Source: Gordius sp. MW1 (lineage: Eukaryota; Nematomorpha; Gordioida; Gordea; Gordiidae). From it: a DNA stretch of 64,000 nt. The translations under genes were made by a program, and so were the position numbers. Shown in pieces: positions 31,684 to 64,000 of this stretch. The DNA lies in the NCBI GenBank assembly GCA_964036665.1, contig OZ038532.1:10930537-10994536 (forward strand), read 5' to 3'. Each line of letters starts with the position of its first letter. Positions within the stretch are counted from its first letter, which is position 1. The notes beneath the pieces were generated by a model, which did no database searches, was not told the DNA's origin, and saw only the letters and a list, made by a program, of their open reading frames with translations.

Positions 31684-31915
31684 GTTCTTTCCGATCTCGT
31701 AAGTATACTTGCATTATGCATTCAGATTTAAATTTTTTTTTTATTAATAAGTAAATATTTCTAAATTTTAATTCCCTTTTCAAATTAAATTAATTTCAAG
31801 AAAATAAAATACCACCCCCATTAGGTAACTTGATATCTTACCAATTTATTTTTAAACTCTTTTACCATAATAACAGGTTAATTGACCTAAGACAATAGGA
31901 ATAAACAGATGCTAG

Positions 31916-31968
31916 AGAATTTGGACACAAATGCTTTGTGCGGGGACATGTGTGCCATAAAATGCACT
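31916..31968 (+). pseudogene. Helentron endonuclease fragment fused to KLHL10 scrap
   Basis: TTGGACACAAATGCTTTGTG and the following bases match the Helentron frame around LDTNALCGD (31228-31270). The match ends abruptly, and KLHL10 intron/exon sequence begins at about 31970. The piece at 33690-33895 stops where this one starts. Confidence 0.75.
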
Positions 31969-31969
31969 T

Positions 31970-32233
31970 ATTAATTGGATGTGTACTTGTAATTCATACG
32001 CAAAGTAGGATTTTGCAGCAATAGGAAAAATCCCGTATTAAGCCACAAATTCATAAGTCGTCTTAGCATTTCAAATTCTAATCTAGGTACGATCAGAGCC
32101 AAAATCAATGGACCCCATTTTGTCCCATGCATTATAAGCGCAAAGACGCTAGCGCGACCGTTTTGGGAGATCGAATATACATTGTGGGTGGTTTTAATGG
32201 AAGCTCGTACTTGATTACGGCCAAGAGATACAA
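31970..32233 (+). pseudogene. KLHL10 intron-6/exon-7 fragment lacking one kelch repeat
   Basis: This matches the left-arm KLHL10 sequence from about 50949 through exon 7 (about 51170), then jumps from one GGTGGTTTTAATGGA motif to the next about 141 bp later (51305). Exactly one kelch repeat is therefore missing. The frame stays open: MHYKRKDASATVLGDRIYIV, then GGFNGSSYLITAKRYNPD. Similarity ends at ATCCCGATAG (about 32243), where the zinc-knuckle candidate begins. Confidence 0.85.
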
Positions 32234-33195
32234 TCCCGATAGTTCGGAAAATATTGAACATGTGGTTGTCGAGGAAGAGAAGGATCTAGAGTTACTTGGA
32301 AAGGGCATTAAAATGAAGGAAACCTATCAAAACAAACCCAACGACTGTTGGACCAAATACTTGATAAAAAGGTTATTAATTGCTAAATTTTTGCCAAACC
32401 TATTTTCGTCATTCATGTTTCTTATAGGCTATAATTAAATATTATTAAAATATTTGCATTAAATATAGTGTTTTTAATCCATTAAATTTTGTAACTTATT
32501 TTCGAACATTGAATTGTAAAATAAAATTATTATGGTTAACATATAATAAATAGTATATGCACTAAAAACGTTGCGTAGAACAAGCTCTTGGAAGTTTGAA
32601 ATTGATGTAAAAAGAATTAGGTAGGGTTACCAATGCTTCTTCAAAATATTAGAAATCTAACTCTTATCATTTGAAGCAAAAATTTTTTTATTTGTATCTT
32701 TTGTCGTTTTAAGTGAATGATAAATATCCCGCTATAATAATAATTTTATTTAAGTTTTTTCATAAAATTTCATACGTTGGACGACATGAATATAGGTGTA
32801 TGGAATATCATGAAATAAAAGGTAGGAATTTATTAATTTTTATTCTTATATTATCTGACCCTAAATTTTTATATTTAGGTACTAAATGTGATATTTGTAA
32901 AAGGTGGAACCACATCACGGACGAGTGCTATTATTATAAAAATGTTCTAGAAGTTGGTGTCGTATGTTATGTATGTAATGAAAGAGGGACGCACGAGTGG
33001 ATGGACTGTGCGTGGAAAAACAACGATGAAAAACCAGCGTACATCAAACGGGAATGGATTTGGGCTCGAGTATTGGATGGCGAAAAACGCCGACGCTTTA
33101 AGGAAGTGGGTACTCAAATCGAATGGAATACAAGAATACTAAAAGTACAAATCGTGAATCCATTACAGAGCGATGTCCCTTCCCAAAAACCTTGA
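32127..33195 (+). CDS. Candidate chimeric kelch / CCHC zinc-knuckle protein
   Basis: Three phase-consistent exons (32127-32371, 32796-32821, 32879-33195; GT..AG introns of 424 and 57 bp) join to 195 codons plus stop. The first about 38 residues come from the KLHL10 fragment. An unrecognised acidic/charged part with KDLELLGKGIKMKETYQNKP follows. Two zinc knuckles come next: C94-x2-C97-x4-H102-x4-C107 (CDICKRWNHITDEC) and C120-x2-C123-x5-H129-x4-C134 (CYVCNERGTHEWMDC). A basic C-terminal tail completes it. CCHC knuckles usually bind single-stranded nucleic acid. The 3' exons look like an older gene; the 5' kelch part looks newly attached. The start at 32127 is only the first ATG in the fused frame, and a real upstream exon could exist instead. 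Expression is unknown. Confidence 0.5.
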
Positions 33196-39284: not shown

Positions 39285-40300
39285 TAGTGTTGTGACGGGC
39301 GCGCTAGATAGAGCGCCCTAGGGTGTGCTGAGGGGTATTGTAGTCTTATGAAAAAGAGCCACACCCACACTGCTAGTCTCCTTTTCTGGTGAAGACATTG
39401 AGTGTGGGTGTGTTGAATACCGACCATTAGCTAGTCTATTATTTTTTCATAGAGACCCGATAGACCCTTAGATATATGCTAAGGGGGTGTTATTAACTAG
39501 TTGTTATTGTCATCATCATCAACACGATGTGTGCTGTCGTTGTGCGTGCAGTGCAGTCAAATTTGTTAATCTAAGCTATCCTATCTATAAGTGTAAGTAA
39601 ATTAATATTAAATTAGAATTTTCTAAGTTGTTTAATTTTTTTTTTTGGGGGGGGGGGGGGTGTAACCGAAAGGGAGGGTTACAATATCAAATAAATGTAT
39701 CTAAACTTGGTGTTTTTGTTATGCCCCTCCAAAAATATAATGTTCTTAAGCCCTTGTAAATTTTACACGCTGTAACAAGTAAAAGCACAACATACATTTT
39801 ATTTCAAAAAAATCATTTTTTTCCAAAAAATAGTTACAAAAAAATTTAACCATGAAAATTTTATAACCCCCTCCTTCAAAAAATCCTTCTTATGTTTCTA
39901 GGTTTTTATGTCTTAAAGTCTTTGATGTAACTAAACCATAATATTTTAACCCATTTAATTTAGTTATTAATCAAAAAACTTTTCATTCCTACCCCCCCCC
40001 CCCCTCATTTACACCACTGATTTATCCACAGTGTTGCTATTTTATGTTAAAAAAAGTAAATAGTACAACCCTCATGCCTTATTTGTTTCATCAATGTGAT
40101 GGTTAATGTGACTAATGAAATGGCACATGTGGCGGTTCTATTTTCTACAATTTAGGACCATGGGGGAGGGGATTAGTAAAAAAAGGGACCTTACACTAGG
40201 CAAGCGCGCCTTACGAGGGACCTTTATAAGGGTTGGCTTCTTAGTCTCTTTCTTTCTATTAAGGCGTGGGTGTAAAATGGCGCGCCGCATAACAACACTA
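39285..40300 (+). mobile_element. hAT-type non-autonomous element A with 8-bp duplication
   Basis: A 1016-bp element. Ends are TAGTGTTGTGACGGGCGCGC and CGCCGCATAACAACACTA. A perfect cctacacg duplication lies at 39277-39284 and 40301-40308. It contains poly-T/poly-G and poly-C runs. No transposase is present. A second, inverted copy lies at 43379-44449. Confidence 0.85.
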
Positions 40301-40787
40301 CCTACACGATAGATAGTAGTGTTGTAAAAAACCAAGGGTTTCAATTGGTCGCCTGCAAGCGTTGACGTTTATTTTCACCCAGCCTTATCAGTGTTAGGTG
40401 AATTTTCTTGGGAGAGCTTTGGCGTTTGGCGTTTTTATAAAAAAGACCTAAAGCGTTCTGGGTGAATGTTTCGGGGTGACCTTTGGCGTTTAGGTTTGGG
40501 TGTATTAAACACCTAAAGGGTGTGGGTGGATAACATTATTAACCTTTTGGTTTGGTTTTGGTCGTTTGGGATGGGGCAAGCAAATATATCAATTTTAGGT
40601 AATAAACTTTTAATTTAAGAAAATAAAAATATTATATCATGACGTCACTGAGTTTAAACTTTTTCCATTGTGACGTCATAATGAAAAGTATTATAATTTA
40701 TAATCTAATCTCTAGTAAATTATAGTTAATTATTATGCTTTGCTTATGCTGCATTATAGAAGTAATGTTTTATTTATGAAAAAAAGA

Positions 40788-41205
40788 TGGCTAAAATCTG
40801 TTTAATGATTTCAAAATTTATTTTTTAGACATGCCAAAAATTTTATAAAAATTTATAAAAGGTGGGAAATTTCGCTTTGTAGAATCTTCTATATAGATGG
40901 CTAAAATCTGTTTAATGATTTCAAAATTTATTTTTTAGACATGCCAAAAATTTTATAAAAATTTATAAAAGGTGGGAAATTTCGCTTTATAGAATATTCT
41001 ATATAGATGGCTAAAATCTGTTTAATGATTTCAAAATTTATTTTTTAGACATGCCAAAAATTTTATAAAAATCTATATAAGGTGGGAAATTTCGCTTTAT
41101 AGAATATTCTATAAAGATGGCTAAAATCTGTTTGATGATTTCAAAATTCATTTTTTAGACATGCCAAAAATTTTATGAAAATTTATTTAAATATATATTT
41201 TTGAA
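40788..41205 (+). repeat. Tandem repeat, about 110 bp x4 (left arm of foldback B)
   Basis: Units read GATGGCTAAAATCTGTTTAA, TTAGACATGCCAAAAATTTT and GGTGGGAAATTTCGCTTT, ending in AGAATATTCTATAT. The mirror array at 42110-42630 has five units, one of them shortened. Confidence 0.9.
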
Positions 41206-42109
41206 TTTTCTGCCTCAGCCAGGTGGTAATAATTTTTTTGAACATTTTAATATGGTTTAACTTTATAATTTACACATTTGCTAAGCAGATTAATTGCGAT
41301 TAATCACAAAATTTAATTTCAAATATATTTTGAATTCCTCGGCTCTTGTAAAAGATAAAGACTTATTAGTTATATAATGTCCCTTTTATTTTATATTTGT
41401 AGCATTTTAAATAAAGTGTATTAATTATATGCATACGCATAGCATATTATTAAACTATATTTTCATTGCTTTCAGCAATTGCTCGTAGTGATTTTTTATT
41501 AAAAGAATGTTCAAAATGTATTAAAAACACAAATTGTAAAAGATATCATAAACAAAAATAGCACATACATTTTTTCCAACAGAAATAAACTTAAGCGAGA
41601 GCATTCGTGGGGTATAATCATACCCCACGACGAGGCAGGGTTAATCGTAACAATTATTATTAGACGTGTTATACGGTTATACGTTAAAAAAGAAATGATA
41701 TAATAAAGAGCCTAGCTAGCCCTCCCCCACCATGCCTCCTTGTTCTGTTTGTTTAGATGTTAAGTTCCATATGTGCTCGGACGGACACATAAGCTCTGTC
41801 ATAAATATTAGCTTGTTTAAGTACGAGCAATGCTGAAAGCAATGAAAATATAGTTTAATAATATGCTATGCATATAATTAATACAATTTATTTAAAATGC
41901 TACAAATACAAATATAAAATAAAAAGGACATTATATAACTAATAAGTCTTTATCTTTTACAAGAGCCGAGGAATTCAAAATATATTTGAAATTAAATTTT
42001 GTGATTAATCGCAATTAATCTGCTTAGCAAATGTGTAAATTATAAAGTTAAACCATATTAAATGTTCAAAAAAATTATTACCACCTGGCTGAGGCAGAAA
42101 ATTTAAAAA

Positions 42110-42630
42110 TATATAATTAAATAAATTTTTATAAATTTTTTGGCATGTCTAAAAAATCATTTTTGAAACCATTAAACAGATTTTAGCCATCTATATAGAA
42201 TATTCTACAAAGCGAAATTTTCCACCTTTTATAAATTTTTTGGCATGTCTAAAAAATAAATTTTGAAATCATTAAACAGATTTTAGCCATCTTTATAGAA
42301 TATTCTATAAAGCGAAATTTCCCACCTTTTATAAATTTTTATAAAATTTTTGGCATGTCTAAAAAATAAATTTTGAAATCATTAAACAGATTTTAGCCAT
42401 CTTTATAGAATATTCTATAAAGCGAAATTTCCCACCTTTTATAAATTTTTATAAAATTTTTGGCATGTCTAAAAAATAAATTTTGAAATCATTAAACAGA
42501 TTTTAGCCATCTATATAGAAGATTCTACAAAGCGAAATTTCCCACCTTTTATAAATTTTTATAAAATTTTTGGCATGTCTAAGAAATAAATTTTGAAATC
42601 ATTAAACAGATTTTAGCCATCTTTTTTTCA
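42110..42630 (-). repeat. Tandem repeat, about 110 bp x5 (right arm of foldback B)
   Basis: Inverted counterpart of 40788-41205. Unit number differs between the arms (five against four), so the arrays have changed independently since the arms were formed. Confidence 0.9.
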
Positions 42631-43108
42631 TAAATAAAACATTACTTCTATAATGCAGCATAAGCAAAGCATAATAATTAACTGTAATTACTAGAGATTA
42701 GATTATAAATTATAATACTTTTCATTATGACGTCACAATGGGAAAAGTTTAAACTCAGTGACGTCATGATATAACTATTTTTATTTTCTTAAATTAAAAG
42801 TTTATTACCTAAAATTGATATATTTGCTTGCCCCACCCCAAACGACCAAAACCAAACCAAAAGGTTAATAATATTATCCACCCACACCCTTTAGGTGTTT
42901 AATACACCCAAACCTAAACGCCAAAGGTCACCCCGAAACATTCACCCAGAACGCTTTAGGTCTTTTTTACAAAAACGCCAAACGCCAAAGCTCTCCCAAG
43001 AAAATTCACCTAACACTGATAAGGCTGGGTGAAAATAAACGTCAACAACTAAGCTTAGCAATACGCTGGGAAAAACCAGCCAGCCGTTTTTACAACACTA
43101 ATAGATAG

Positions 43109-43370
43109 ATAAGATACGCAGCAGTAGGTGATGAGGGCAGGGCGTTTGATTGACGTTCGATACAACGTCAAAACGCATAAAACCCAATATCTCGAAAACT
43201 ACTCGACCGATTTGGCTGGAACATATCTTAAAACACGCTCCGGAGTGGCAGGAATAAACTGTGAAATTTTGAGCCAAATCGGTCCGGTAGTTTTCCAAAA
43301 TTGGTGGCGGCATACATACACACATAGTTTCATTTTTATATATAAGATTTTATAATTGTAAAAAATTTAT
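43109..43370 (+). repeat. Interspersed repeat resembling a retroposon tail
   Basis: GCGTTTGATTGACGTTCGAT, AAACCCAATATCTCGAAAAC, CGACCGATTTGGCTGGAAC and GCATACATACACACATAG lead to TTTTTATATATAAGATT. This layout (conserved GATTT-GGAAC block, then a TATATA-AGAT tail) is typical of arthropod interspersed repeats. A relative lies at 57615-57800. The autonomous parent is not seen. Confidence 0.55.
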
Positions 43371-43378
43371 TGCATAAA

Positions 43379-44449
43379 ACGTGTTGTTATGCGGCGCGCC
43401 ATTTTACACCCACGCCTTAATAGAAAGAAAGAGACTAAGAAGCCACACCCTTATAAAGGTCCCTCGTAAGACGCGCTTGCCTAGTGTAAGGTCCCTTTTT
43501 TTTTTACTAATCCCCTCCCCCATGGTCCTAAATTGTAGAAAATAGAACCGCCACATGTGCCATTTCATTAGTCACATTAACCATCACATTGATGAAACAA
43601 ATAAGGCATGAGGGTTGTACTATTTACTTTTTTTAACATAAAATAGCAACACTGGGGATAAATCAGTGGCGTAAATGAGGGGGGGGGGAGTAGGAATGAT
43701 AAGTTTTTTGATTAATAACTAAATTAAATGGGTTAAAATATTATGGTTTAGTTACATCAAAGACTTTAAGACATAAAAACCTAGAAACATAAGAAGGATT
43801 TTTTGAAGGAGGGGGTTATAAAATTTTCATGGTTAAATTTTTTTGTAACTATTTTTTTTTGAAATAAAATGTATGTTGTGCTTTTACTTGTTACAGTGTG
43901 TAAAATTGACAAGGGCTTAAGAACATTATATTTTTGGAGGGGCATAACAAAAACACCAAGTTTAGATACAATTTATTTGATATTGTAACCCTCCCTTCCG
44001 GTTACACCCACCCCCCCCCCCCAAAAAAAAAAATTTAAACAATCCTGCGTACGACCCTGACTAAATTGTTATAATAAAAGTAAGTTGAATGTCCTGTCCA
44101 GTACTTAGAAAATTCTATTTTTATATTAGTTTACTTACACTTATAGATAGGATAGCTTAGTTAGATTAACAAATTTGACTGCACTGCACGCACAACGACA
44201 GCACACATCGTGTTGATAATGATGACAATAACAACTAGCTAATAACACCCCCTTAGCATGTATCTAAGGGTCTATCGGGTCTCTATGAAAAAATAATAGA
44301 CTACTAATGGTCGGTATTCAACACACCCACACTAATGTCTTCACCAGAAAAGGAGACTAACAGTGTGGGTGTGGCTCTTTTTCATAAGACTACAATACCC
44401 CCTCAGCACACCCTAGGGCGCGCTATCTAGCGCGCCCGTCACAACACTA
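43379..44449 (-). mobile_element. Inverted copy of element A
   Basis: Element A in reverse: it starts GTGTTGTTATGCGGCGCGCC and ends CGCCCGTCACAACACTA. The first two bases of the inner end are changed and the 8-bp flanks do not match, unlike the copy at 39285. It was probably placed here by rearrangement rather than by simple insertion. Confidence 0.8.
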
Positions 44450-45915: not shown

Positions 45916-47226
45916 GAAATTTATAGGCAACAGTTAGCACGCTCTTTTAACATCCTTTTCGTGGTTTCCCATATTATACAAAAAAAAATTTATTTAATTT
46001 CCTAGTATATTAAAGGTATCGAGTAATATTTAAGTTGATAGAGCACCACATAATAGATATTAATATTACTACATTTCTTTAAAAAAAATATATTCAAATT
46101 AAGATATTTTAAATTAAAGATTGTAGTTTAAATCAATGTAAATCAAGTCACAACTTTAAAAAATGTCAACTTAGACATATAGTAAACTTTAATTGCTCGA
46201 GATGAAAAGTTAAAAAAAGTAAAAAGAATTTAAAGATTTATTCCTAGAAACAAATGCATAGCCATATAGCAATTAAAACTAGACAACATAAAAGATAAAA
46301 ATTTTTAAATTCTATAGCAATTAAAAGATTAATGGCCTTTTAATGTTAAGAATGTTCTACCCAGGTTGATGATTAAATTCAACATACGGGGAAATAAGTT
46401 AGATGAAAATAGATTAATATAAAGGTATGGAGAATGGGAAAGCGTAAGTGTAGGAACATTAAAATTAATGATATAAAAATAAATGGGGATGAGTTTAAAA
46501 TAAGACTGGCGTTTATTTACGATTTACTCCTTTTTAAGTTTGAAAATAAATAAAGGGAACAAAGAACCCAAGAGAACACATTCTAATTTTTCAAATCAGG
46601 AATGCAATACCAAGGTAAGAAATTATTAGAGTTTTTGTAAAGAATTTTATATATAAGATATCATTTTTTGCACGGTCTATCCACTTATTTAACGTGAAAA
46701 TTATATATGCTATTATCGTATCCGATGATACGAAGATGAAGATATCTTCCCACCTCATCTTATTCAAAAGTTAAGAGTTCAACACGCGGTACAATTCTTT
46801 TGATCTTACACGTTGTACACTCATGACCATTATTCTTTTACATTTAATTTCTAGTACGCGTATGTTACCCCCCCCCCCCCCCGACGCGCTTATACGTTTG
46901 TGTTATTTATTTCTCCCCATATATGATTGTTTATCAACATGAATACGTATGAGTGATTTGTAGTAAGGAGATTGATACATTAATATAATTTTTCTTGGGA
47001 TAAAATAGATTGGCGAAATGTAGAGCGGTAAAGTACGATTACTATAAAAGTCCGTTCCACATTCTTAAACTTAGCATTTGATTTTGAAGCAAGTGACTTT
47101 AAAATTTGGAGACTGACCACACAATAAAGGGGGAGGGGGTAAATTTACCTTGATTGTTATCATTCTTATTCAATCATATTTTAATTGCTATGCAATTTTT
47201 TTATTTCACTAATATATTCCCAATTA
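45916..47226. other. AT-rich stretch upstream of KLHL10
   Basis: It contains a GTAGGAACATTAAA repeat copy at 46441-46560, a poly-C run near 46870 and a stray AATTGCTATGCAATT motif at about 47180. No promoter element could be pinned down for the kelch gene that starts at 47227. Confidence 0.45.
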
Positions 47227-50200
47227 ATGGTAACTACGCTTGATTCTACAAATTCAATGCATGTAGATTACGATCTTGATTTTTATGGGCCTAATGAAAC
47301 TTCAAATAGTGGTTGTGATAAGTATACAGTTTCTAGGAGAGATTCATTTTCATTTCACAACATGAGGATATTGGAGGAGTTTGGGGATAACCGGGGCGAA
47401 GGTTGTGATATATCTTTGAAGGTATACTATTGTTAACTTTAAGGCATGTTTTGCTATCAGATATGTTTTGTCCCTAAAAACAATTATTGTAAGCTTCTAC
47501 AATTTAAAAACAAAATATACTTATATACTTTATTTTTTGTAGGTCACCAAATTAGGTCCCTATTTTTACAAGTTTTTGACCTATTCTTAAAAAACAATTT
47601 ACACATAAATTTTGTCTTAGAAAGGTTGGAGAAACAACATTTACCGTCCACAAACTGTTGCTTAGCGAAAAAAGCTCTTATTTTCGTGCCCTTTTGTATT
47701 TTCATTTTCGGGATCCTTGCTGCAGGGAAATTGTAATTAAAGACTTGACTTCCCTCGATATGGATAAACTTAAAAAATACTGTTACACGGGAAAATATGA
47801 AATAAATACTGATAACGTTCAACTAAGGAATATTGTATAACTTTATAATCAATATGCTAATTATAATAGCATATGGCATTTTAAAATAATAGCATTTATG
47901 ATAAAAAAATATAGTGATATATATTGCTTGCCCTCCTATCTGATAAATTTCGAGATGAAAAGTTTTAGTATAAATAATCGTAAAAATAGTAGATTTTCAT
48001 CAAAAATTAAATCTAAAACCAATTAAGGTAGTTAATTATCTCTATATTCGCAACATCAACAAGAATTCTATTAATATCATTATGTTTTCTAGATAATTTA
48101 GAAAAAAAACATCTAGATAATTTAGAAAAAAACATTTGTTTTTTTCGCCAGGGGGTCTAACCCAATTCCCCCCTCCCCCCTGCTTACGCCACTATATAAA
48201 TACTTGGTTAATCGTAAAAATATATTTCGACATAAATTAATAATTATAAACTTCCTTTACAAACTTACAAAATCTAACAGGATACCTTTATCCTAGCCGA
48301 TCGATTTTCCTTCATAACTCTACTCGACTCCTGCGTTCGATACATGATAACCAATATCGACATAGATAATTGTTTTGGTCTCCTTAGCTTTGCCCAGTGG
48401 TTTAGTTACCCCCGCCTCTTAAACGCTGTTCAAGGTTATGTTCGGAGTAATTTTGAGCCTATAACAGAATTTAGCACCGACTTTTTAGCCATTTCGTTAC
48501 CGAATTTAGTTAATCTATTACTGAGAGAGGAATTAAACGTGAGGAACGAAGAAAAAGCTTTTGAAGCCATAATTAGATGGATTAGTCACGACCCTAACAC
48601 TAGGAAGGTTAATATAGTGCCATTGTTGAAAAGTATAAGGATGGGCCTAATAGATTTAATGTATTTTGGTGAAAAGGTTGAAACTTGTCCCTACATTAAA
48701 GATATTCCAGAATGTAAGCCCATAATAAAGGAGGCTAGGAGATGTATATACAACTTGAAGACCACATCATCTCCCGATACCGATATGGATGAAGAAGAAA
48801 TTTTAACGTTCAAGTTTAAACAATAAATTTAATTAAATTTTTCATAATTAATATTACAATTAAAGAATTAATTGTTGGTAACTGTCATGGGCGTACGCAG
48901 GTTTTGAATTAGAGGGGGCCAGATTAAAAAAAAAATTTTTTCTAAAATTTTCCTGAAAGCAAAAAAAAAAAATAATAAAAATAAAAATAAAAAAAAGGTC
49001 TCGACTATTCGGAGGGGGGGAGCCACATTAGGGTGGGGCAGAGCCTAATGAGGGTGGGGCAGGGCAAAATTAGGGGGGGGGGCAAAACAAATTTTTTTTT
49101 AATTCTTGAGGGTTTTTGTATTGAAAAAAATCTTATTTTTAAAATTAGGGGGGGCAGCCGCCCCCCTCCCTGCCCCCCCCCCCCCCCCCCCCCCCCTGCG
49201 TACGCCCATGGTAACTGTTATGATTAAAGGACATCTGCATCCTTTTTTAGAAAACCATAACTTATAAAAATGGACATTTAGGGTAAGTCCGTGATATTAT
49301 TATTTTTTTTTATAATATTAGAAATAAGATAATTAATAAATTGTGGGTTTTTTTATAATACTCAGAAGATAATAATAAATTGACTTAACCTTTATGTAAT
49401 ATATTGTTTAGACCGAAGTTGACGAAGCATAAAAACAAGGATACAGCTTTAAATTTAAAACATCGTTTTACAAAGAGAAGAGTACCTAACGAAATAATGT
49501 TCGTAATTGGTGGAATTGATATCCATAGTACTACTAGCATCGCAGAAGTATACGATGCTAGAGCAGATAGATGGGTCAGATGTCCAGATCTAGAACCCAG
49601 GGAATCTAGGTTTAATTAATTTAAAACGCAATGCAACTAATTAGGTTTTGGACCTCATGTTTGATTTATTTCATTTTTTCTGAGGTAGGTCAAGTAAAAA
49701 TTTTGGTTAGGAGTTGTAAAGTTTGCCATAATGATTCATTATTGCAGTTTAGCTTAAAAATTTTAGTCTTTCTAAATTTCCCGAGGCTAAAAAAAATCAG
49801 CGGCTGTAAACATAATAATCACAATTTTTAAGTAGACCATCTATGAAAATTCTAAGAATTTAAACTGAGCAGTTAACATGAATTCAGCCTAACTGTAAGC
49901 AAAGCTAAGTATAAATTCTTTAGCCGTATATTAACATTAAACCCATGGCCTATTACGGATTGATCAGTTTGGAGCAAAAGATCTATATGATAGGAGGTTT
50001 CTACGGGGACGATCACTACAACACTTGTAAGGTGTTGGAGCCTGGTCGATTGAGCCATATTACCCATATTCCGATTTGTAAATATAATTAACCACATTGC
50101 ATTGCCAATTAGAAAATCATCTATATATAAATATATCCTCATTAATTCAAATGCTTTCTAAGCCCGTGTATAAATGTATTGTATTGAATGCGATTTGCAG

Positions 50201-51961
50201 GGGAGACTAGGCTAACAGAAGATATATGGACCGAAATCGCTACTATGAACTCCGCTAGAAGTTATGTTAGCGTAGCGGCTTTAGGGGGCTCAATATAAGC
50301 CATAGGGGGATTTGATGGTCATGACTGTCTGAACACGGCCGAAAGGTTTTAACTATTTTGCATTTAAAAAACTGAATACTAACACACAACCCAATATTAT
50401 ATTTACATGTACATTAAACATATAGATGATAACATTAAAAAAAATTTCCTTTTAATTCTTGATTATGGTTGCTGGACAGCCAAAATATCTAAACCCATTT
50501 CAACCCTCCATTTTATCAATCCTAAAGTACCATATTGGAAACAAATTTTATAAAAAAGATCTTTGCTTGATATTTTTGATTGATATAATTCGATCGTCTA
50601 TTAAGGCACAGAATAACAAAAAAAGCATCTTTACGCTCTTAACATTCTAAATGTCGATCTTATTTACTATGTTAGTGGCTAATTTTCTTTATATATAAAA
50701 ATTTTAATATACTGTGAAAATGTATTCCAATCTACCAGCAATTCATGAAACTTTACTTAAGGTTTATTTTCGATCTTTGCTAATTTCGTTTTAATTTTTA
50801 ATAGGGTTTGAATATAATTCTCAGACATGTCATAATTGAAGTTTAGTATCTCATTACTCTTTGCGCACAAATATAATGAAGTTATGGTGCTCAATTTTCT
50901 ATTATTAAATTAATTTACTTAGTCGCATAAAACGTTAAGGGGTCTTATTAATTCGATGTATACTTGTAATTCGTACGCAAAGTAGGATATTGCAGCAATA
51001 GGAAAAATCCCGTATTAAGCCACAAATTCATAAGTCGTCTTAGCATTTCAAATTCTAATCTAGGTACGACCAGAAGCAAAATCAATGGACCCCAATTACC
51101 CCCATGCATTATAAGGGCAAGGACGCTAGCGCGACCGTTTTGCGAGATCGAATATACATAGTGGGCGGTTTTAATGGTCAAGAATGCATGTGCAGCGCTG
51201 AATATTATGACCCGACCAGCGATACTTGGACTCTAATATCATCTATGAATGTGAAGCGGAGCGGGGTGGGTGTCGTAGCTTTACACGATAAGCTGTATGC
51301 TCTAGGTGGTTTTAATGGAATCTCGTACTTGGTTACGGCTGAAAGATACAATCCCGATGGTGGTAATTGGGAATCCTTGCCCGAAATGGATCAACCTCGA
51401 AGCAATTTCGCTTGCCAGGTATACTAAAGTTTTAAACTTGTTATACATACGTAGCCATAGAGGGCGGTAATTACCCCTCCCTGCCTCCCCTTGGCTACAC
51501 CCATGTACGTAGCCTATTTATTCAAAACTAATCGCCATCTCAGTGGAGAGGTCACCTATTTAGTGGCTTAATTGGTTTTCCAATATTATTTTATTGCCCA
51601 TTTATAATATCTGAACTCAATTGTATAAAAAATGCTTAAATTATCCCTAGCCTAGCACTTAAATTATTTAAGCGAGCAACACTCGAAATTAAAAAAATAT
51701 TATGTTCCTTTTAAAAACTAATTTAATTTTATTAGGCAACAAATTTTATAGAATAACTATATGCAGGTAATAGATGATGTGATATACGTGGTGGGTGGCT
51801 TTAATGGAGTATTTTCCATACAACAAGTGGATTGCTTCAATGACAAAACCCATGACTGGTTTAAAAAAGCGCATTATACGAATTTATCCCGAAGGGCCTC
51901 GATTGCTTGTGTTATTGCCAATTTACCAAACAGAAATAAATTCATATATTCTCGGCTCTAA
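47227..51961 (+). CDS. KLHL10: KLHL10-type BTB-BACK-kelch protein, one in-frame stop
   Basis: KLHL10 is a Cullin-3 substrate adaptor of the male germ line. Phase-consistent exons: 47227-47421, 47625-47834, 48281-48813, 49412 to about 49574, 49924-50044, 50201-50345, 51064-51418, 51767-51961. They total 639 codons including the end; human KLHL10 is about 608 residues. BTB: GCDISLKVGETTFTVHKLLL. BACK: NEEKAFEAIIRWISHDP. Kelch blades include MFVIGG, YDARADRW, KIYMIGGF, AIGGFDGHDCLNTAER, DRIYIVGGFNGQE and VIYVVGGFNG. The donors of exons 3 and 4 are least certain. Defect: TAA at 50296-50298 in GGSI*AIGGFDG, where the inverted copy has TAC (Tyr). Conserved PRAYHG is altered to PMAYYG. Either a very recent pseudogene or a read-through/assembly issue. 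Confidence 0.82.
48886..49210. mobile_element. Complete CATGGGCGTACGCAGG MITE with 8-bp duplication
   Basis: A 325-bp element with a perfect 16-bp inverted repeat (CATGGGCGTACGCAGG / CCTGCGTACGCCCATG). It is flanked by gtaactgt at 48878-48885 and 49211-49218. The matching position in the other palindrome arm (about 54487-54500) is an empty site with one gtaactgt, which proves both boundaries. G-runs and C-runs of ten or more make up the core. Confidence 0.95.
51440..51510. mobile_element. Deleted CATGGGCGTAGCC-family MITE, present in both palindrome arms
   Basis: TACGTAGCCATAGAGGGCGG to TGGCTACACCCATG, flanked by tacgtagcc, is a short internal-deletion derivative. The inverted arm has the same scrap at about 52200-52270, so this insertion predates the duplication. 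Confidence 0.65.
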
Positions 51962-52269
51962 CATAAAATTCTCTTTGCCTTTTCAATTTAATGTTGAATT
52001 AATAAATCTTTGTGTGTCTGTAAGTGTAAATAAAAGATATTTTATCTAAAGTATGTTTGTATTGATAATTTAAGCATTTTTTATACAATTGAGTTCAGAT
52101 ATTATAAATGGGCAATAAAATAATAAAGGAAAACCAATTAAGCCACTAAATAGGTGACCTCTCCACTGAGATGGCGATTAGTTTTGAATAAATAGGCTAC
52201 GTACATGGGTGTAGCCAAGGGGAGGCAGGGAGGGGTAATTACCGCCCTCTATGGCTACGTATGTATAAC

Positions 52270-54942
52270 AAGTTTAAAACTTTAGTATACCTGGCAAGCG
52301 AAATTGCTTCGAGGTTGATCCATTTCGGGCAAGGATTCCCAATTACCACTATCGGGATTGTATCTTTCAGCCGTAACCAAGTACGCGGTCCATTAAAACC
52401 ACCCAGAGCATACAGCTTATCGTGTAAAGCTACGACACCCACCCCGCTCCGCTTCACATTCATAGATGATATTAGAGTCCAAGTATCGCTGGTCGGGTCA
52501 TAATATTCAGCGCTGCACATGCATTCTTGACCATTAAAACCGCCCACTATGTATATTCGATCTCGCAAAACGGTCGCGCTAGCGTCCTTGCGCTTATAAT
52601 GCATGGGTGTAATTGGGGTCCATTGATTTTGCTTCTGGTCGTACCTAGATTAGAATTTGAAATGCTAAGACGACTTATGAATTTGTGGCTTAATACGGGA
52701 TTTTTCCTATTGCTGCAATAACCTACTTTGCGTACGAATTACAAGTATACATCGAATTAATAAGACCCCTTAACGTTTTATGCGACTAAGTAAATTAATT
52801 TAATAATAGAAAATTGAGCACCATAACTTCATTATATTTGTGCGCAAAGAGTTATGAGATACTAAACTTTAATTATGACATGTCTGAGAATTATATTCAA
52901 ACCCTATTAAAAATTAAAACGAAATTAGCAAATATCGAAAATAAACCTTAAGTAAAGTTTCATGAATTGCTGGTAGATTGGAATACATTTTCACAGTATA
53001 TTAAAATTTTTATATATAAAGAAAATTAGCCACTAACATAGTAAATAAGATCGACATTTAGAATGTTAAGAGCGTAAAGATGCTTTTTTTGTTATTCTGT
53101 GCCTTAATAGACGATCGAATTATATCAATCAAAAATATCAAACAAAGATCTTTTTTAAATTTGTTTCCAATAATGGTACTTTAGGATTGATAAAATGGAG
53201 GGTTGAAATGGGTTTAGATATTTTGGCTCAGCAACCATAATCAAGAATTAAAAGGAAATTTTTTTTTGAATGTTATCATCTATATGTTTAATGTACATGT
53301 AAATATAATATTGGGTTGTGTGTTAGTATTCAGTTTTTTAAATGCAAAATAGTTAAAACCTTTCGGCCGTGTTGAGACAGTCATGGCCATCGAATCCCCC
53401 TATGGCGTATATTGAGCCCCCTAAAGCCGCTACGCTAACATAACTTCTAGCGGAGTTCATAGTAGCGATTTCGGTCCACATATTTTCTGTTAGCCTAGTC
53501 TCCCCTGCAAATCGCATTCAATACAATACATTCATAAACGGGCTTAGAAAGCATTTGAATTAATGAGGATATATTTATATATAGATGATTTTCTAATTGG
53601 CAATGCAATGTGGTTAATTATATTTACAAATCGGAATATGGGTAATATGGCTCAATCGACCAGGCTCCAACACCTTACAAGTGTTGTAGTGATCGTCCCC
53701 GTAGAAACCTCCTATCATATAAATCTTTTGCTCCAAACTGATCAATCCGTGGTAGGCCCTGGGTTTAATGTTGATATACGGCTAAAGAATTTATACTTAG
53801 CTTTGCTTACAGTTAGGCTGAATTCATGTTAACTGCTCAGTTTAAATTCTTAGAATTTTCATAGATGGTCTACTTAAAAATTGTGATTATTATGTTTACA
53901 GCCGCTGATTTTTTTTAGCCTCGGGAAATTTAGAAAGACTAAAATTTTTAAGCTAAACTGCAATAATGAATCATTATGGCAAACTTTACAACTCCTAACC
54001 AAAATTTTTACTTGACCTACCTCGGAAAAAATGAAATAAATCAAACATGAGGTCCAAAACCTAATTAGTTGCATTGCGTTTTAAATTAATTAAACCTAGA
54101 TTCCCTGGGTTCTAGATCTGGACATCTGACCCATCTATCCTCTAGCATCGTATACTTCTGCGATGGTAGTAGTACTATGGATATCAATTCCACCAATTAC
54201 GAACATTAATTCGTTAGGTACTCTTCGCTTTGTAAAACGATGTTTTAAATTTAAAGCTGTATCCTTGTTTTTATGCTTCGTCAACTTCGGTGTAAACAAT
54301 ATATTACATAAAGGTTAAGTTAATTTATTATTATCTTCTGAGTATTATCAAAAAACCCACAATTTATTAATTATCTTATTTCTAATATTATAAAAAAAAA
54401 TAATAATATCACGGACTTACCCTAAATGTCCATTTTTATAAGTTATGGTTTTCTAAAAAAAGGATGCAGATGTCCTTTAATCATAACAGTTACCAACAAT
54501 TAATTCTTTAATTGTAATATTAATTATGAAAAATTAATTAAATTTATTGTTTAAACTTGAACGTTAAAATTTCTTCTTCATCCATATCGGTATCGGTAGA
54601 TGATGTGGTCTTCAAGTTGTATATACATCTCTTAGCCTCCTTTATTATGGGCTTACATTCTGGAATATCTTTAATGTAGGGACAAGTTTCAACCTTTTCA
54701 CCAAAATACATTAAATCTATTAGGCCCATCCTTATACTTTTCAACAATGGCACTATATTAACCTTCCTAGTGTTAGGGTCGTGACTAATCCATCTAATTA
54801 TGGCTTCAAAAGCTTTTTCTTCGTTCCTCACGTTTAATTCCTCTCTCAGTAATAGATTAACTAAATTCGGTAACGAAAGGCCTAAAAAGTCGGTGCTAAA
54901 TTCTGTTATAGGCTCAAAATTACTCCGAACATAACCTTGAAC
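52270..54942 (-). pseudogene. KLHL10: Inverted partial KLHL10 copy (exons 3 part to 7)
   Basis: Reading leftward: BACK part (54942-54544), kelch exon 4 (about 54290-54110), exon 5 (about 53778-53640), exon 6 (about 53505-53362) and exon 7 (about 52640-52290). Exons 1-2 and the last exon are absent. Exon 4 lost two bases (GATGCTAGAGGATAGATGG), which brings in a stop. Exon 7 lost one base after GGFNG (about 52390), which shifts the frame. Yet exons 5 and 6 keep residues conserved in KLHL10 (PRAYHG and GGSIYAIGG) that are mutated in the left copy. It cannot encode a full protein, but it is nearly perfectly complementary to the left-arm transcript. Confidence 0.88.
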
Positions 54943-54959
54943 CGGGATAGCGATTAAGA

Positions 54960-55240
54960 GAATTGATGCCAACCCTTGCTTCTAAACATTTCTTTTTATT
55001 TGAGATATTTAACTTATAAATTTAGATTTTAACATGTTTATTTTTTCTCGTGTTTTTAAAAGTTCTCATTTACGTACATTTTCCTGTGCATTTGGCATAA
55101 ACCCTAGCCGATACTCCAAAAATTGTCAAGTAAGAGGGGAGTAAGTGAAAGTGGGCAAAAGGTAGCTAGGGGTAGTACGAGTGAGGGGGAGAATCGAACG
55201 AGTGCCGTAATTAATTATTTATACAAATTTTCCATCACTA
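54960..55240. other. No gene recognised
   Basis: Mixed AT-rich sequence outside the palindrome, with purine-rich GTGAAAGTGGGCAAAAGG-type tracts. No coding, RNA or repeat signal stands out. Confidence 0.4.
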
Positions 55241-57800: not shown

Positions 57801-58423
57801 CATATATACATACGTATATACACTTTACTTTATATATATAGATAACTTAGAAGCTCTTATTATATAATATCTTTCAAAGTGTAAAACAATAATACCAATT
57901 GAATGGAGGTAATAGTTGAATATTCAAGCGATAATTTTACTTTTTAAAAATAACTATGAGTTATATTGCTGGGAAATAAGAGTTTACAAACAGTGAGCGA
58001 ATGTGGATACGAAGGCACACAAGAGATTACCAAACATGTAAGTGGTTGTTTTTGGGGACGGTCCCGGAGGATTAGTAGTTTTGCATTCAAATGCTTGTAA
58101 CCGAAACACTAATAGCAATAAAAAAATTAATAGATAAAGATAAAATGGAGAATTAACAAGAAAAAGAAAAGTAAATTAATAAAACGTTAGGTACCTATGG
58201 AAGGGGAAAATTTTCATTGGTGGGTTTTTTGAGGTTTTCTTTTTTCGTTTACAAGTGGGGGTTTCATCAGGGTGATTCTCTGCAAAAAATTGGTAAGATA
58301 TCATTTCCTTGAAATTAATTTAATTTGAAAGGGCATTAAAATTTAGAAATATTTAATTATTAATTAAAAAAAAAATTAAATTTAAATGCATAATGCAAGC
58401 ATACTTACGAGATCGGAAAGAAC

Positions 58424-61400
58424 TTAGAGGCTTCCCTCGGAGGGACCGGTAATACTAAAGATTGGACGATGATAGCTAAAGTAGCTGATATAAGACTTGC
58501 TAACTAAGGGTACGGTGTTGCGAGCGAAAACACCATCAAGACACGCGCCACCCCTTGTAGTGGGAGTCCTCGGCGAATGCAATCGCAGGCCAAACGTTGA
58601 TTCCATGAAATTTAGAAAGCTTTCATTGGCTATATCGCTAAGATCGACATTAAAATCCCCGGTTTATATAATAGGTATATTGTGATATCGGCTGGTACGC
58701 GTATCAGTTGTTACCCCGGGTACACGAGCGGTGTATGGCAATAAATAGGTTTCGAAAAATTCGCGAATATTGACGTGCGAGCTACTGTGCGAAACATACA
58801 CCGTTATTTATAAAACCCGTTCCCCTCGGATCGTGCGTTCTATGGCACATATGTCCCCGCACAAAGCATTTGTGTCCAAACTTGGGTCTAGCGTTTGTGT
58901 GTTCTTGTTGTACTTAAGCAGTTCGTGGGGCGTATATGCCAGAGTACAACTGTTTTTCGCATAAATAGCAACACCACCAGCCCGAATTGTGGACCTTTTA
59001 AATTGTTTAATACACGTATAGTTCGGTAGATCGACACGGTCGTGATCGTCAAGCCAGGTTTCGCAAAACGCCAGAATATTAGCCGTCAGAAGCAAAGGCC
59101 GCACCTTGACATCTTCCTGATGACATTTTAAACTCTGTACGTTGAAAGTTAAGAGCGATAAATCCTCGGAACCGATAGGGGCCAAGAAAGCGGCGCATTC
59201 ATCGGATAACAAGTGCAAAGGGTTCGTTTCTAATCTTGCTATTGCGGCCATTAAGACAGTATTAGGTTTACCGCGTGCGTGGTAAAATTCGTGATCGTCA
59301 CACACGTTTGTCATGGTTAAACCAGCGAGACTCGGCGAGAGCGCAACGTAAACAAGCTGATGTTCGTGGCTCCTATTGTAATCGTAGATAACCCTATCGT
59401 ACGAGCTACCTTGCGCTTTGTGTGCAGTAATTGCGCTAGCTTCAACCAAGGGAAATTGAGTTCGTTTACAGCGCACAGTGCTCCTTAAATATATATGAGC
59501 GGTTCGTTGAAGTATCGGCACCCATGATTTTTGTAAATATGGATGCTCCTTAATATATGGGCCATACTTGATGTTGGCTATTAAGCCAACACGAGATTTG
59601 GGAGGAAACTGAAGCCAAAGCATAATTACATTGTTATCATCTGACGATTCAATGTATTGTAAAATCCCGATCGTGCCATTAACAAGACCATCACCTACAT
59701 TAGTGCGTATCATGTAGGGTCTATTTGGCAGTAATATAAGAGAGCTCGGGAGAGCAGCCGTTTCGTCTAATTTCATTCTGGCGACTTTATGTTTGGCACT
59801 CTCCAATTGAGACGCACTTGTATGCCCGGAGTAAACATCAAGGGCTTGGTGTACCACTCCACCTGCAAACGCGCTCCGATTAAACCTATCAACGTCTGCA
59901 GTCATGTAAAAAATTCTTATGGCCGTATCAGCAGGGGATATAGCATTGTTAGCAACGAATCGACTTTCAATAAGGTTTTTTTCCTCTAAACTTAAGGCCT
60001 GCCCATCCCCCACTTTTGTTAGGATATCGGAGAAGGTTTTTTCTGTTTGACGCATTATATCCGTAAGCGGATAATAAGCCAAAGAGCGCCAGAGAATTGG
60101 ACCTATAAGGGTATGGCGTGGGTGCTTATAAATCGGAGTTTGTCTAACTGGTGGCAGTTGCCGTAAATCGCCACAAAATACAATATTCATTCCACCAAAG
60201 AGTGTGTCATTGTTGGAGGTGAATTGCTGTAGTCGAGTATTAATTTTAGTTAACATGTCTGCACCTATCATACTTATTTCATCGATGAATATCGTGTCTA
60301 TACCGCGGAAAACGACGCGAAGTGAATTTAGCGATTCTCTAGAGAAATGGTCAGCAATGCTTGCAGTTACTTGTTTAATGCGGAAAGCAGAGTGGACGGT
60401 AACACCATCTATTGCACTTGCAGCCATACCGGTGGAAGCCGCTGATAGGAACGCATTATAACCAGCAACACCTTCCGAGTAGCGATTACATGTTTCCATC
60501 AGTAGTTTGAGGGTAAAGGTTTTCCCACTACCTGCTGGCCCTGTAAGGAAAATCTGTATGGGGTCACTATTGCCTCCAGGCCACTTTCGATGTATGAACT
60601 CTTCGACCAAAGACAATTGCCGCCCGGTAGCACGACGAACTTGTGAACAATATTCTTCGTGGGTAAGTATGTTAGCACGTTTATGAATGATCGCCGTGTT
60701 TTGTAGAGCAAATTTTCGAATGTCACTAGTATCAGCGACTGCCAACATGGCTACCATCGCATCATCAAATTTAGTGCGTTCCCGGTCGGGCTGTTTGGTA
60801 GGTAATTCCTCTGTATACAATCGACGACATTTAGACATGGTTAGTTCTATATCAACGTCCGATTCGTAACGTTTCCGAGCTTCGAGAATTTCGCGCTCGT
60901 GCGAATCATAAATTGCAATATAATTGTCATTGTTCAATAGATCTACGCGTTCGTTACGGAATGGTATATACAAAAGCGTCATTTCTCGTTTGTAGTCGGT
61001 AAGTTCGTTTAGATTATAGCGTTTGTAGCGTATAATTATAAGAAGTTTCCGTTTAACATATTCGCCATTTTGACGAACATAATAATAAGCCACAAAATCG
61101 GCTAGACAAACGCTGGTAAGAGCATCGGGTCGTTGCGCGTATCGATCGAATAAACTGTCTTGCCAAATATTTGTGGCTTCTGGATCAAGAGATTCGGTGT
61201 CCATTTGGGACTGACTCTTTACCACACGTTGCCTATCGTGTGGCCAAACCGTCGGTATGTAAACTATCTTACGGCCCGAGGCCGACATCCCTAACCATAA
61301 CAAATACCATGCTGCTTCTTGGCTACTCATTTCAATTGCGTTAAGTGTGCGAGTTCCCATTTCACGCATACAATCAAAAAAAACTTGATCGGGATATTCT

Positions 61401-63600
61401 TCTCGTAATTTTATTAAATCCCTATGAAGGGAGCTAAGGCCACGCTCGGCTTTGTTCACGTTTCAATGTACGCTGCACACGAATATTCATCTAGGATAAA
61501 TTGTATATCCATGTTAGATTTAAGAGTCATCGATACCCATGGATTCATAGGATTATTCCATAGTTGATCCATGCCTCGTTTTAGAAATACCATAGGACGG
61601 TGTATTCCAGCGCGCAATACGTTGAGATAATTGGCGTACGAGGAAACGCGATGGAAGTCGAGGAATTCGTCGAAGCTTGTAAGTACCTGACTCCGAGACT
61701 CCAGATCCGCTTTCATATCGACGCACTTTTTTGTTAGAGTATCTTTGCGCGAATCTTCTTTAGCCATGGGTATCAGAATGCGGGTTTCGAGCATAGGCCA
61801 AAACGGTATACCAAAGCGACAGACGTGATGGCCACGCATCTTTTTATAGCACGTAAATGTATGTTTATGAACTTGCAGTTTGGCGAATTTCTCATCGAGC
61901 CATTTATGCAGATCTATGCTAATTAGTCTATCGATCAACTGTATTGTACGGGGCATGTTTTCGGATACCGGTTCCAAGGGATCATTTTCTAACCATAGTA
62001 ATATGTGTGCGTGTGGACTACCGCGGTGTTGAAACTCGATTCGTTTGAAGTAATCTAGTACACGGTAACGCCCAAAAGGAGAACACTTCGGAGATTTAAG
62101 TACCAATAATAGCTTGTCTACTAACTTAGCAAAATACAAGGAACAAGTTACAGGATCGTCATTGACCAATGTACTCCGCTCGAGACTGGATATTGCCACG
62201 ACTGTGTCGGCGCCTTCGTAAGTTTTAGGGTATTTTAATTTATAGAGAGTGTGTAACAAATCTGGCCATACAAATTCGCAAGCACTAAGAGTAAAAAACA
62301 AAGTGGGCCTGCCTAACTGGCGAAGCATGGCAAAAAGATCTTTCTTTCGACTAGACCAATAATGGACCGAATTTGGTATTGATTTAATAAAGGCTAAGTT
62401 TGTGTCTAAACATTTTTCGAAATATTCCTCGTCCTCGATCATTTTTCGTGTGACACTACAAGAGTTGCTCAAAACATTTTTGAATGTAGCATACATCGAT
62501 GCAGTAACACGTAATTTCATCACCTTAGCAGCCATATACAAAACATGCTCTGGGACGGCGCCTCGTCTATCCTGACGCCGAATTTCACTGGTAGCCATAG
62601 TAAAAGGAGTTACTCGCACACCGTGTTTGAAAATTCGAGGCTCGCCAATGTATATACCTGGAAATGATAGCTCTTCTGCATATGTATCAAAAGCCAGACC
62701 AAGTGGAGTTATGTTTTGACCAGGTGCGAGAGAAAGATAATGCTCTTCATTCCATAGCATAGTTTGCTGTTGACATGTCATATTATCGGCAGCTTCGTTG
62801 ACGATGGGCAGTGTTTTGACTTCATGCTCTTCATTCCCTATCATTGTACCCTGTTGACCAGCAGTTACATTTGATATACTACTCTCAGGTTCTAAGAAGG
62901 AGGCATCAATAGTAATATCTTTATAGAGGGGCTTTGTCATCAAATAACCCAACCATAAGCGGACATCTTCCTTATTTACGTAACCCACAAATTGAGACGT
63001 TTTGTAGGATTGATGTTTTTTTATATGCACGTTTATTGCATAGTCGTCAGCGACTGAAGGCGGTAATGCCGATACCATAGAATTAATGTCAGCGGGTACA
63101 TTTATAATTTGACCAAACAATCGTTTACTGCCATAGTGATAGCGCAATCGACGAATTTGTAGGAATAGTAACCGTGGTGATACCAACCTTTCTGTAACAC
63201 AATTTAACAGCGGTAAATGCTCTGGGTATGGCGGATATGCAAAACCATTTGATTTTGACAAAATAGGTATCCGAGCACCAGACAAAGATGTATAGCAAGT
63301 ATTACATAACATGAATGAAGATACCTTTTCGCCGGGAAATTCAGTCGTAAGTAATGAAACCATCTTTTTACCGACAGATCTAAGGTCATGATGGAACCAT
63401 AAACGATCGCACACGTTACAATGGTGGCCAAACCCGCATGTAAACGTTAGAGCAAATTCTCGAGAGGCGAGCTCATATATCTCGGGTACGCCAATAATTT
63501 CGTCTAAAAGACTTATTTCAGTAAGGAAGCGGGCGGGATTGCGTTTACGAGGGGGGGCCTCACCGGGTTCTTCACCAGAAGTGGCCGAGAGGCGTGCGCG
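58424..63600 (-). pseudogene. Helentron Rep-helicase-endonuclease frame, few but critical lesions
   Basis: Same domain order as the left copy, in two long open stretches (about 63597-61456 and 61459-58808). HUH motif at about 62039-62007; helicase Walker A at about 60545-60515. A 4-nt deletion (about 61455-61470) falls inside the paired-tyrosine motif: YIAEYVNK becomes YIET then stop, so the second catalytic Tyr is lost. In the endonuclease, Leu to stop occurs at 58810-58808 and again at 58666-58664 (before GDFNVD). A frame change lies where the repeat array joins the body (about 63600). The helicase is intact. One codon of the zinc-finger region (TCGFGHHC) is deleted relative to the left copy. 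Confidence 0.9.
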
Positions 63601-64000
63601 GTCCGGTAGCCGAGAGGCGTGCGCGGTAAGCGCGTTTCTTGGTAGCTTCGTCGGTGTTCTTACCGGCAGCCGAGAGGCTTGCGCGGTAAGCGCATTTCTT
63701 GGTAGCTTCGTCGGTGTTCTTACCGGCAGCCGAGAGGCGTGCGCGGTAAGCGCGTTTCTTGGTAGCTTCGACGGTGTTCTTACCGGCAGCCGAGAGGCGT
63801 GCGCGGTAAGCGCGTTTCTTGGTAGCTTCGTCGGTGTTCTTACCGGCAGCCGAGAGGCGTGCGCGGTAAGCGCGTTTCTTGGTAGCTTCGTCGGTGTTCT
63901 TACCGGCAGCCGAGAGGCGTGCGCGGTAAGCGCGTTTCTTGGTAGCTTCGTCGGTGTTCTTACCGGCAGGCGAGAGGCGTGCGCGGTAAGCGCGTTGTTT
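63597..64000 (-). repeat. 60-bp coding tandem repeat, right Helentron (at least six units)
   Basis: Units of exactly 60 bp encode the same 20-residue basic repeat (RAYRARLSAAGKNTDEATKK) as 26247-26512 and run off the window edge. Neighbouring units are nearly identical. A deletion at the inner junction (CGGTCCGG at about 63600) breaks the frame into the body of the protein. Confidence 0.92.

What the first reader, a model, noticed from the sequence alone, without database searches (positions are those of the whole stretch)
48428..54942. KLHL10 palindrome that could make a long hairpin RNA
A 2.9-kb inverted duplication of exons 3-7 and their introns is separated by only 418 bp, with the last exon in the loop. 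Read-through from the left gene would fold into a near-perfect double-stranded RNA of gene sequence. In Drosophila, hairpin-RNA loci built from inverted gene copies feed siRNAs into Argonaute and act mainly in testis, and KLHL10 itself is a spermatid gene. The inference is a candidate natural hpRNA silencing an intact KLHL10 elsewhere.
Basis: partly seen in the sequence, partly recalled or inferred. Interest (0 to 1): 0.82.

Follow-up and report, generated by a model that had tools for sequence, protein, structure and literature searches.

The report
Inverted duplicate of decayed KLHL10 paralog
A second, fast-changing copy of the sperm gene KLHL10 in what is probably a horsehair worm was duplicated head-on into a palindrome and has since decayed in both arms; it could in theory make a hairpin RNA, but its likely transcript stop signals sit in the loop and the simplest reading is a gene relic among transposons.

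Summary
The palindrome is real: left arm 48416-51645, right arm 52064-54960, 38 mismatches in 2,887 aligned columns, 418-bp loop holding the last exon. The predicted intact KLHL10 exists elsewhere (C3:19419671-19425055, eight exons, 696 aa). Its closest full-length relative is from a horsehair worm, Gordionus, so Drosophila is only an analogy. The window copy is a paralog, 77% identical in protein, with 80 polarised amino-acid changes against 8 in the intact gene. Its exon lengths differ from the intact gene only by multiples of three, and the arms share no frame or splice lesion, so it kept its frame until about when the palindrome formed; then each arm broke separately. Against a hairpin RNA: two AATAAA lie in the loop before the right arm (though the intact gene lacks them), and matches to the intact exons (78 of 1,053 gap-free 21-nt windows) do not clearly exceed shuffled divergence (mean 54.7). 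For it: Dicer-type domains are encoded, and one siRNA can suffice in flies. Fragments of the paralog lie among repeats at 11 further places. No RNA data were available. Most likely a template-switch inverted duplication of a dying paralog.

The parts
47227..47421 (+). left gene exon 1 (start ATG 47227)
   Evidence: aligned to the intact gene
47625..47822 (+). left gene exon 2 (BTB part); donor GT changed to CT
48281..48813 (+). left gene exon 3 (BACK)
49412..49609 (+). left gene exon 4; 99 nt shorter than in the intact gene, in frame
49947..50044 (+). left gene exon 5; acceptor AG changed to AT
50201..50345 (+). left gene exon 6; TAA stop inside (50298 is A, C in the right arm)
51064..51418 (+). 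left gene exon 7 (Kelch), open
51767..51961 (+). exon 8, lies in the loop
48416..51645 (+). left arm of the palindrome
51646..52063 (.). loop; holds exon 8 and AATAAA at 52001 and 52029
52064..54960 (-). right arm of the palindrome
52291..52644 (-). right-arm exon 7, 1-nt deletion
53360..53504 (-). right-arm exon 6, open
53661..53758 (-). right-arm exon 5, acceptor AG kept
54096..54291 (-). right-arm exon 4, acceptor AC, 2-nt deletion
54557..54936 (-). right-arm exon 3, cut near the arm's outer end
48886..49210 (.). insertion in the left arm only, terminal inverted repeats CATGGGCGTACGC, target duplication of 8 or 9 bp ((G)GTAACTGT); the right arm is the empty site
54980..55208 (.). dispersed repeat with a sharp edge 19 bp outside the right arm; all 39 listed other matches start within 2 bp of this edge
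46714..47034 (.). dispersed 321-bp repeat, several times found in pairs about 1.4 kb apart; ends 192 bp before the left ATG

Best explanation
An unprocessed KLHL10 paralog that was still coding, but evolving fast, suffered an inverted duplication: at the end of the gene (52063) the copying strand appears to have switched to the opposite strand at 51645 (2-3 bp overlap) and copied back into exon 3. Afterwards both arms decayed separately. Repeats active in the genome carried or abut fragments of the same paralog elsewhere. The locus is now a palindromic pseudogene with no shown function. Shown: the structure, the intact parent, the lesions, the in-frame length changes, fragments beside repeats. 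Inferred: the template switch, the order of events, the lack of function.
For: Palindrome and divergence. Intact eight-exon KLHL10 at C3:19419671-19425055, all seven introns GT...AG (exon ends placed by hand from homology). Polarised by Gordionus KLHL10, 80 amino-acid changes fall on the window copy and 8 on the intact gene. Exon-length differences 18, -6, 9, 99, 0, 0, 0, 54, and no frame or splice lesion common to both arms in exons 3-7. Exons differ between arms more than introns (23/1,191 against 15/1,696): no sign that the coding sequence is being kept. Inner junction with 2-3 bp overlap. Fragments at 11 further places.
Against: Low intron divergence (0.9% against 1.9% in exons) could mean patchy gene conversion that keeps the palindrome. 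The exon-2 donor lesion lies outside the palindrome and may be older than it. Without reads an assembly fault stays possible, including a mis-joined second allele.
Confidence: 0.75

Rival explanations
1. Natural hairpin RNA: a transcript through both arms folds into a roughly 2.9-kb duplex, Dicer cuts it, and the siRNAs restrain the intact KLHL10 or the paralog fragments.
For: The inner 1,088 nt fold at -694 kcal/mol; 2,126 of 3,207 distinct left-arm 21-mers also occur in the right arm; 78 of 1,053 gap-free 21-nt windows of left-arm exons 3-7 and 65 of 992 of the right arm are identical to the intact gene, with exon 4 above shuffles (left 10 against 0.4, fraction 0.0085; right 2 against 0.2, fraction 0.049); Dicer-dimer and RNase III domains are encoded; fly hpRNAs are thought to arise from their targets and may match by a single siRNA (passages of PMC10317233).
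Against: Two AATAAA lie in the loop; the right arm lacks exons 1-2 and the gene's start; over all five exons the 21-nt matches do not exceed shuffled mismatches (left 78 against 54.7, fraction 0.13; right 65 against 53.5, fraction 0.27). No RNA data.
Confidence: 0.09
2. Ampliconic palindrome kept by gene conversion, as on sex chromosomes, of a male gene.
For: Close arms, low intron divergence, KLHL10 identity, several extra partial copies.
Against: Both arms broken differently; lesions not homogenised. Sex linkage of C6 is unknown.
Confidence: 0.05
3. Assembly artefact: a second allele or fold-back read joined in inverted orientation.
For: Arm difference (1.3%) is in the range of two alleles; cannot be tested here.
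Against: Insertion with target duplication in one arm only; right arm ends beside a different repeat at 54980; left copy continues into exons 1-2.
Confidence: 0.08
4. Foldback-type transposon that carries KLHL10 exons in its arms.
For: Foldback-like elements are common here, e.g. window 39285-44449; a second palindrome with a KLHL10 piece and a Helitron-like element lies at C8:5.36M.
Against: Arm sequence 49209-51200 gave, among the 40 scored of 375 candidates, the two window arms, a broken relative at C7:13.86M, short pieces at C1 and window 32 kb, older paralogs and one short dispersed repeat in an intron, but no second copy with both arms.
Confidence: 0.03

Closest known systems
Unprocessed (duplicated) pseudogene with local inverted duplication
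   Same: Introns kept, intact parent elsewhere, lesions in both copies, 2-3 bp overlap at the junction
   Different: Frame seems to have been kept until the inversion; fragments spread widely beside repeats
Drosophila hpRNA loci (Nmy, Tmy, hp-ODox, hp-tHMG; passages)
   Same: Inverted repeat derived from a host gene copy; intact relative elsewhere; a gene with a spermatid role (recalled)
   Different: No transcript or siRNA seen; AATAAA in the loop; different phylum; match to the presumed target overall as expected from divergence
Coding palindromes in nematomorph mitochondrial genes (PMC6649704, abstract)
   Same: Long inverted repeats over coding sequence, probably the same phylum
   Different: Mitochondrial, perfect, up to 284 bp and under selection there; here nuclear, about 98%, and decayed
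Ampliconic gene palindromes of sex chromosomes (recalled)
   Same: Close arms, short spacer, male gene
   Different: Arms not kept intact

Membership tests
hpRNA locus (as described for Drosophila) | inverted repeat able to form a long duplex | tested here: met
hpRNA locus (as described for Drosophila) | one mRNA-like transcript through both arms | not testable with these tools
   no RNA data; AATAAA at 52001 and 52029 in the loop speak against it
hpRNA locus (as described for Drosophila) | Dicer-dependent 21-22-nt siRNAs from the arms | not testable with these tools
   no small-RNA data
hpRNA locus (as described for Drosophila) | siRNA-length complementarity to a host gene | tested here: met
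   78 of 1,053 (left) and 65 of 992 (right) gap-free windows identical to the intact KLHL10 exons; in total not more than shuffles give (fractions 0.13, 0.27), exon 4 in excess
hpRNA locus (as described for Drosophila) | target rises when Dicer is lost | not testable with these tools
   needs an experiment
hpRNA locus (as described for Drosophila) | Dicer and Argonaute encoded by the genome | tested here: inconclusive
   Dicer_dimer and RNase III hits; the Piwi-domain search did not complete
Unprocessed pseudogene | intact parent elsewhere | tested here: met
Unprocessed pseudogene | introns retained | tested here: met
Unprocessed pseudogene | disabling lesions | tested here: met
   both arms
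Foldback transposon | dispersed copies with the same arms | tested here: not met
   (40 of 375 candidates scored); met instead by the separate element at 39285-44449
KLHL10 | BTB-BACK-Kelch protein closest to kelch-like 10 | tested here: met
   with the intact copy; window copy 491/634 identical to it

The most novel reading that the evidence does not exclude
A fast-evolving KLHL10 duplicate became an hpRNA-like silencer in a horsehair worm, made by inverted duplication among transposons and acting on KLHL10 or on its dispersed fragments: RNAi-based gene conflict in the male germ line outside insects.
Probability: 0.07. Interest if true: 0.8.

Novelty: new member of a known kind. Interest (0 to 1): 0.33.

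Why it matters
If it makes siRNAs, it would extend hairpin-RNA gene silencing in testis to another phylum. If not, it is still a readable example of how a gene duplicate dies: in frame until an inverted duplication, then decay, with pieces of it lying in or beside Helitron-like and other repeats, in a phylum already known for palindromes in mitochondrial genes.

Tried and rejected
Argonaute (Piwi domain) and RdRP searches did not complete. Idea that the exon-8 unit 51693-52065 is itself a mobile unit, because it starts sharply inside repeats and is missing from the C1 copy: rejected as the sole reading, since the end at 52065 follows from the window's own palindrome junction; the sharp start fits a repeat end joined to intron 7. 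Idea that the hairpin is tuned to the intact gene: a first shuffle test treated gap columns as mismatches; repeated with gaps held fixed it shows no excess overall, but exon 4 stays in excess. A first count of the left-arm insertion as 319 columns came from my own label range; the gap is 333 columns. Species name: not settled. Gordionus KLHL10 matches at 57% over 99% of the query; the other matches among the 120 shown of 808 that cover at least three quarters of it lie at 35-46%, including the one with the best E-value (Argonauta, 40% over 89%); some over 45-47% of the query reach 55-59%. This points to Nematomorpha, from one gene. The assembly (211.8 Mb, 12 contigs) equals none of the three nematomorph sizes in the table read (201, 288, 288 Mb); a size near 213 Mb for Nectonema munidae is recalled. 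A paper search for at least two of KLHL10, hairpin RNA, inverted repeat found 603; none of the ten shown contains KLHL10.
Full report
OBSERVATION. Left arm 48416-51645, right arm 52064-54960, loop 418 bp. Arms differ at 38 of 2,887 aligned columns: 23 of 1,191 exonic, 15 of 1,696 intronic. One gap of 333 columns is an insertion in the left arm (element 48886-49210) with inverted terminal repeats CATGGGCGTACGC and a target duplication of 8 or 9 bp, (G)GTAACTGT; the right arm is the empty site.

IDENTITY. The window lies at G000:C6:10930537-10994536 of a 211.8-Mb eukaryote assembly with 12 contigs. A search with palindrome DNA found an older relative on C3. Its eight exons, whose ends I placed by homology, join into a 696-aa BTB-BACK-Kelch protein; all seven introns begin with GT and end with AG. 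Many matches are named kelch-like protein 10, others are unnamed or called hypothetical, BTB-domain or diablo-like. The best E-value is a 1,157-aa Argonauta protein (40% over 89%); the closest full-length match is Gordionus, a horsehair worm, 57% over 99%. The other matches among the 120 shown of 808 that cover at least three quarters of the query lie at 35-46%; some over 45-47% of it reach 55-59%. In a full alignment the intact protein is 59% identical to Gordionus and 47-50% to five others. I therefore take the organism to be a nematomorph; this rests on one gene.

THE WINDOW COPY. It has the same eight exons. Protein identity to the intact gene is 491 of 634 positions; where Gordionus polarises the difference, 80 changes fall on the window copy and 8 on the intact gene. 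dN 0.120, dS 0.336 between the two. Exon-length differences are 18, -6, 9, 99, 0, 0, 0 and 54 nt, all multiples of three. Lesions within exons 3-7 are arm-specific: left, exon-5 acceptor and a stop in exon 6; right, exon-3 cut, exon-4 acceptor, 2-nt and 1-nt deletions. The left exon-2 donor is also lost, but lies outside the palindrome, so its age relative to it is unknown. The copy thus seems to have kept a reading frame until about the time of duplication (inference). Short homology to the intact gene's upstream DNA remains (47139-47188, 83%), but a dispersed repeat sits at 46714-47034, so at most about 190 bp of the old upstream region is left.

JUNCTIONS. Related copies run on past the loop as TATTGAGTTAAC (L011) or TATTGATTTAAC (L009), while the window turns after TATTGA into TAATTTAAGC, the reverse strand of 51645 backwards, with 2-3 bp in common. 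The outer edge of the right arm lies 19 bp from the sharp start of a dispersed repeat at 54980.

HAIRPIN TEST. An RNA through both arms would pair (inner 1,088 nt: -694 kcal/mol; 2,126 of 3,207 distinct left-arm 21-mers occur in the right arm). But AATAAA at 52001 and 52029 and a GT-rich stretch lie in the loop before 52064. The copies L009 and L011 have both AATAAA; the intact gene has neither (GATAAA at the second place), so they are not conserved and their use is inference. Matches to the intact gene in gap-free 21-nt windows of exons 3-7 against 2,000 shuffles of mismatches with gaps held fixed: left 78 of 1,053, mean 54.7, fraction of shuffles as high 0.13; right 65 of 992, mean 53.5, fraction 0.27. 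By exon, left: exon 3, 36 against 22.4 (0.16); exon 4, 10 against 0.4 (0.0085); exon 5, 0 against 2.7; exon 6, 0 against 5.2; exon 7, 32 against 24.0 (0.27). Right: 29 against 15.9 (0.13); 2 against 0.2 (0.049); 0 against 4.4; 3 against 10.2; 31 against 22.9 (0.25). Exon 4 is the one exception; past coding constraint would also clump identity. Fly hpRNAs may act through a single siRNA (passages, PMC10317233), so targeting is not excluded; there is no overall sign of tuning. Dicer-type domains are encoded (Dicer_dimer at C4:18258425 and C4:18173219; RNase III at C4 and C7). Argonaute did not complete.

SURROUNDINGS. Fragments of this paralog lie at 11 further places: C8:20.95M, C8:5.36M, C8:23.4M, C8:28.9M, C7:6.4M, C7:13.86M, C4:22.1M, C3:8.62M, C1:15.87M, C6:3.19M and window 31967-32243; mostly 91-100% alike, C6:3.19M 85-92%, one piece of C7 87%. 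Older relatives are the intact C3 gene and a broken one at C8:8.6M. Five loci (C8:23.4M, C8:28.9M, C7:6.4M, C4:22.1M, C3:8.62M, the last interrupted by about 4.5 kb) carry exon 8 with its acceptor and AATAAA (read out for L011) inside a repeat of about 3 kb, 94-97% alike; several exon-less partial copies end at the point where the exon unit begins (40 of 2,577 candidates scored). At C8:5.36M a Helitron-like element (its window relative has Helitron N-terminal and PIF1 helicase domains; an endonuclease-like tail is my reading) abuts the KLHL10 piece at 51443 in both arms of a 4.35-kb palindrome of 97%. At C7:13.86M KLHL10 pieces flank an inverted structure; inverted repeats of other sequence lie beside the pieces at C8:20.95M and C8:28.9M. 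The other palindrome of the window, 39285-44449, is a dispersed foldback-type repeat. No second full copy of the window-type paralog turned up with the exon-7 protein, arm DNA or the 5' part (best candidates only).

VERDICT. A KLHL10 paralog, inverted-duplicated and decayed, among transposons. Papers: PMC6649704 abstract and one passage; PMC10292708, PMC10380579 and PMC10317233 passages; PMC11603191 passages and section 21; others only as search listings.

Noticed in passing
L011 4775-5147, L012, L013, L014, L015 (C8:23.4M, C8:28.9M, C7:6.4M, C4:22.1M, C3:8.62M): A dispersed repeat of about 3 kb carries the KLHL10 last exon with splice acceptor and AATAAA; several exon-less partial copies end where the exon unit begins, which looks like capture of downstream host DNA by read-through.
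   Followed up: partly
L010 1-9962 (C8:5355501-5365500): A second palindrome, arms about 4.35 kb and 97% alike, made of a Helitron-like element joined to KLHL10 intron 7 and exon 8.
   Followed up: partly
window 39285-44449: Another palindrome (inner spacer about 335 bp, arms 94-98% alike in pieces) with 110-bp tandem repeats in its arms; a foldback-type repeat with tens of copies, often as inverted pairs.
   Followed up: partly
window 26236-31805 (+) and 58303-63882 (-): Two Helitron-like elements, 94% alike, in inverted orientation on both sides of the KLHL10 locus; the first is followed by a KLHL10 fragment at 31967-32243.
   Followed up: partly
L018 (C8:8602401-8612400): A third KLHL10-like copy, about 92% identical to the intact gene over its longest match, with stops, minisatellites and an inserted piece in intron 7.
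   Followed up: no
G000 C4:18173219-18258667: Two Dicer-dimer domains and two RNase III hits within 86 kb, suggesting two neighbouring Dicer-type genes.
   Followed up: no
arms 48416-51645 / 52064-54960: Introns of the two arms differ less (15 of 1,696) than exons (23 of 1,191); cause unknown, possibly patchy gene conversion.
   Followed up: no
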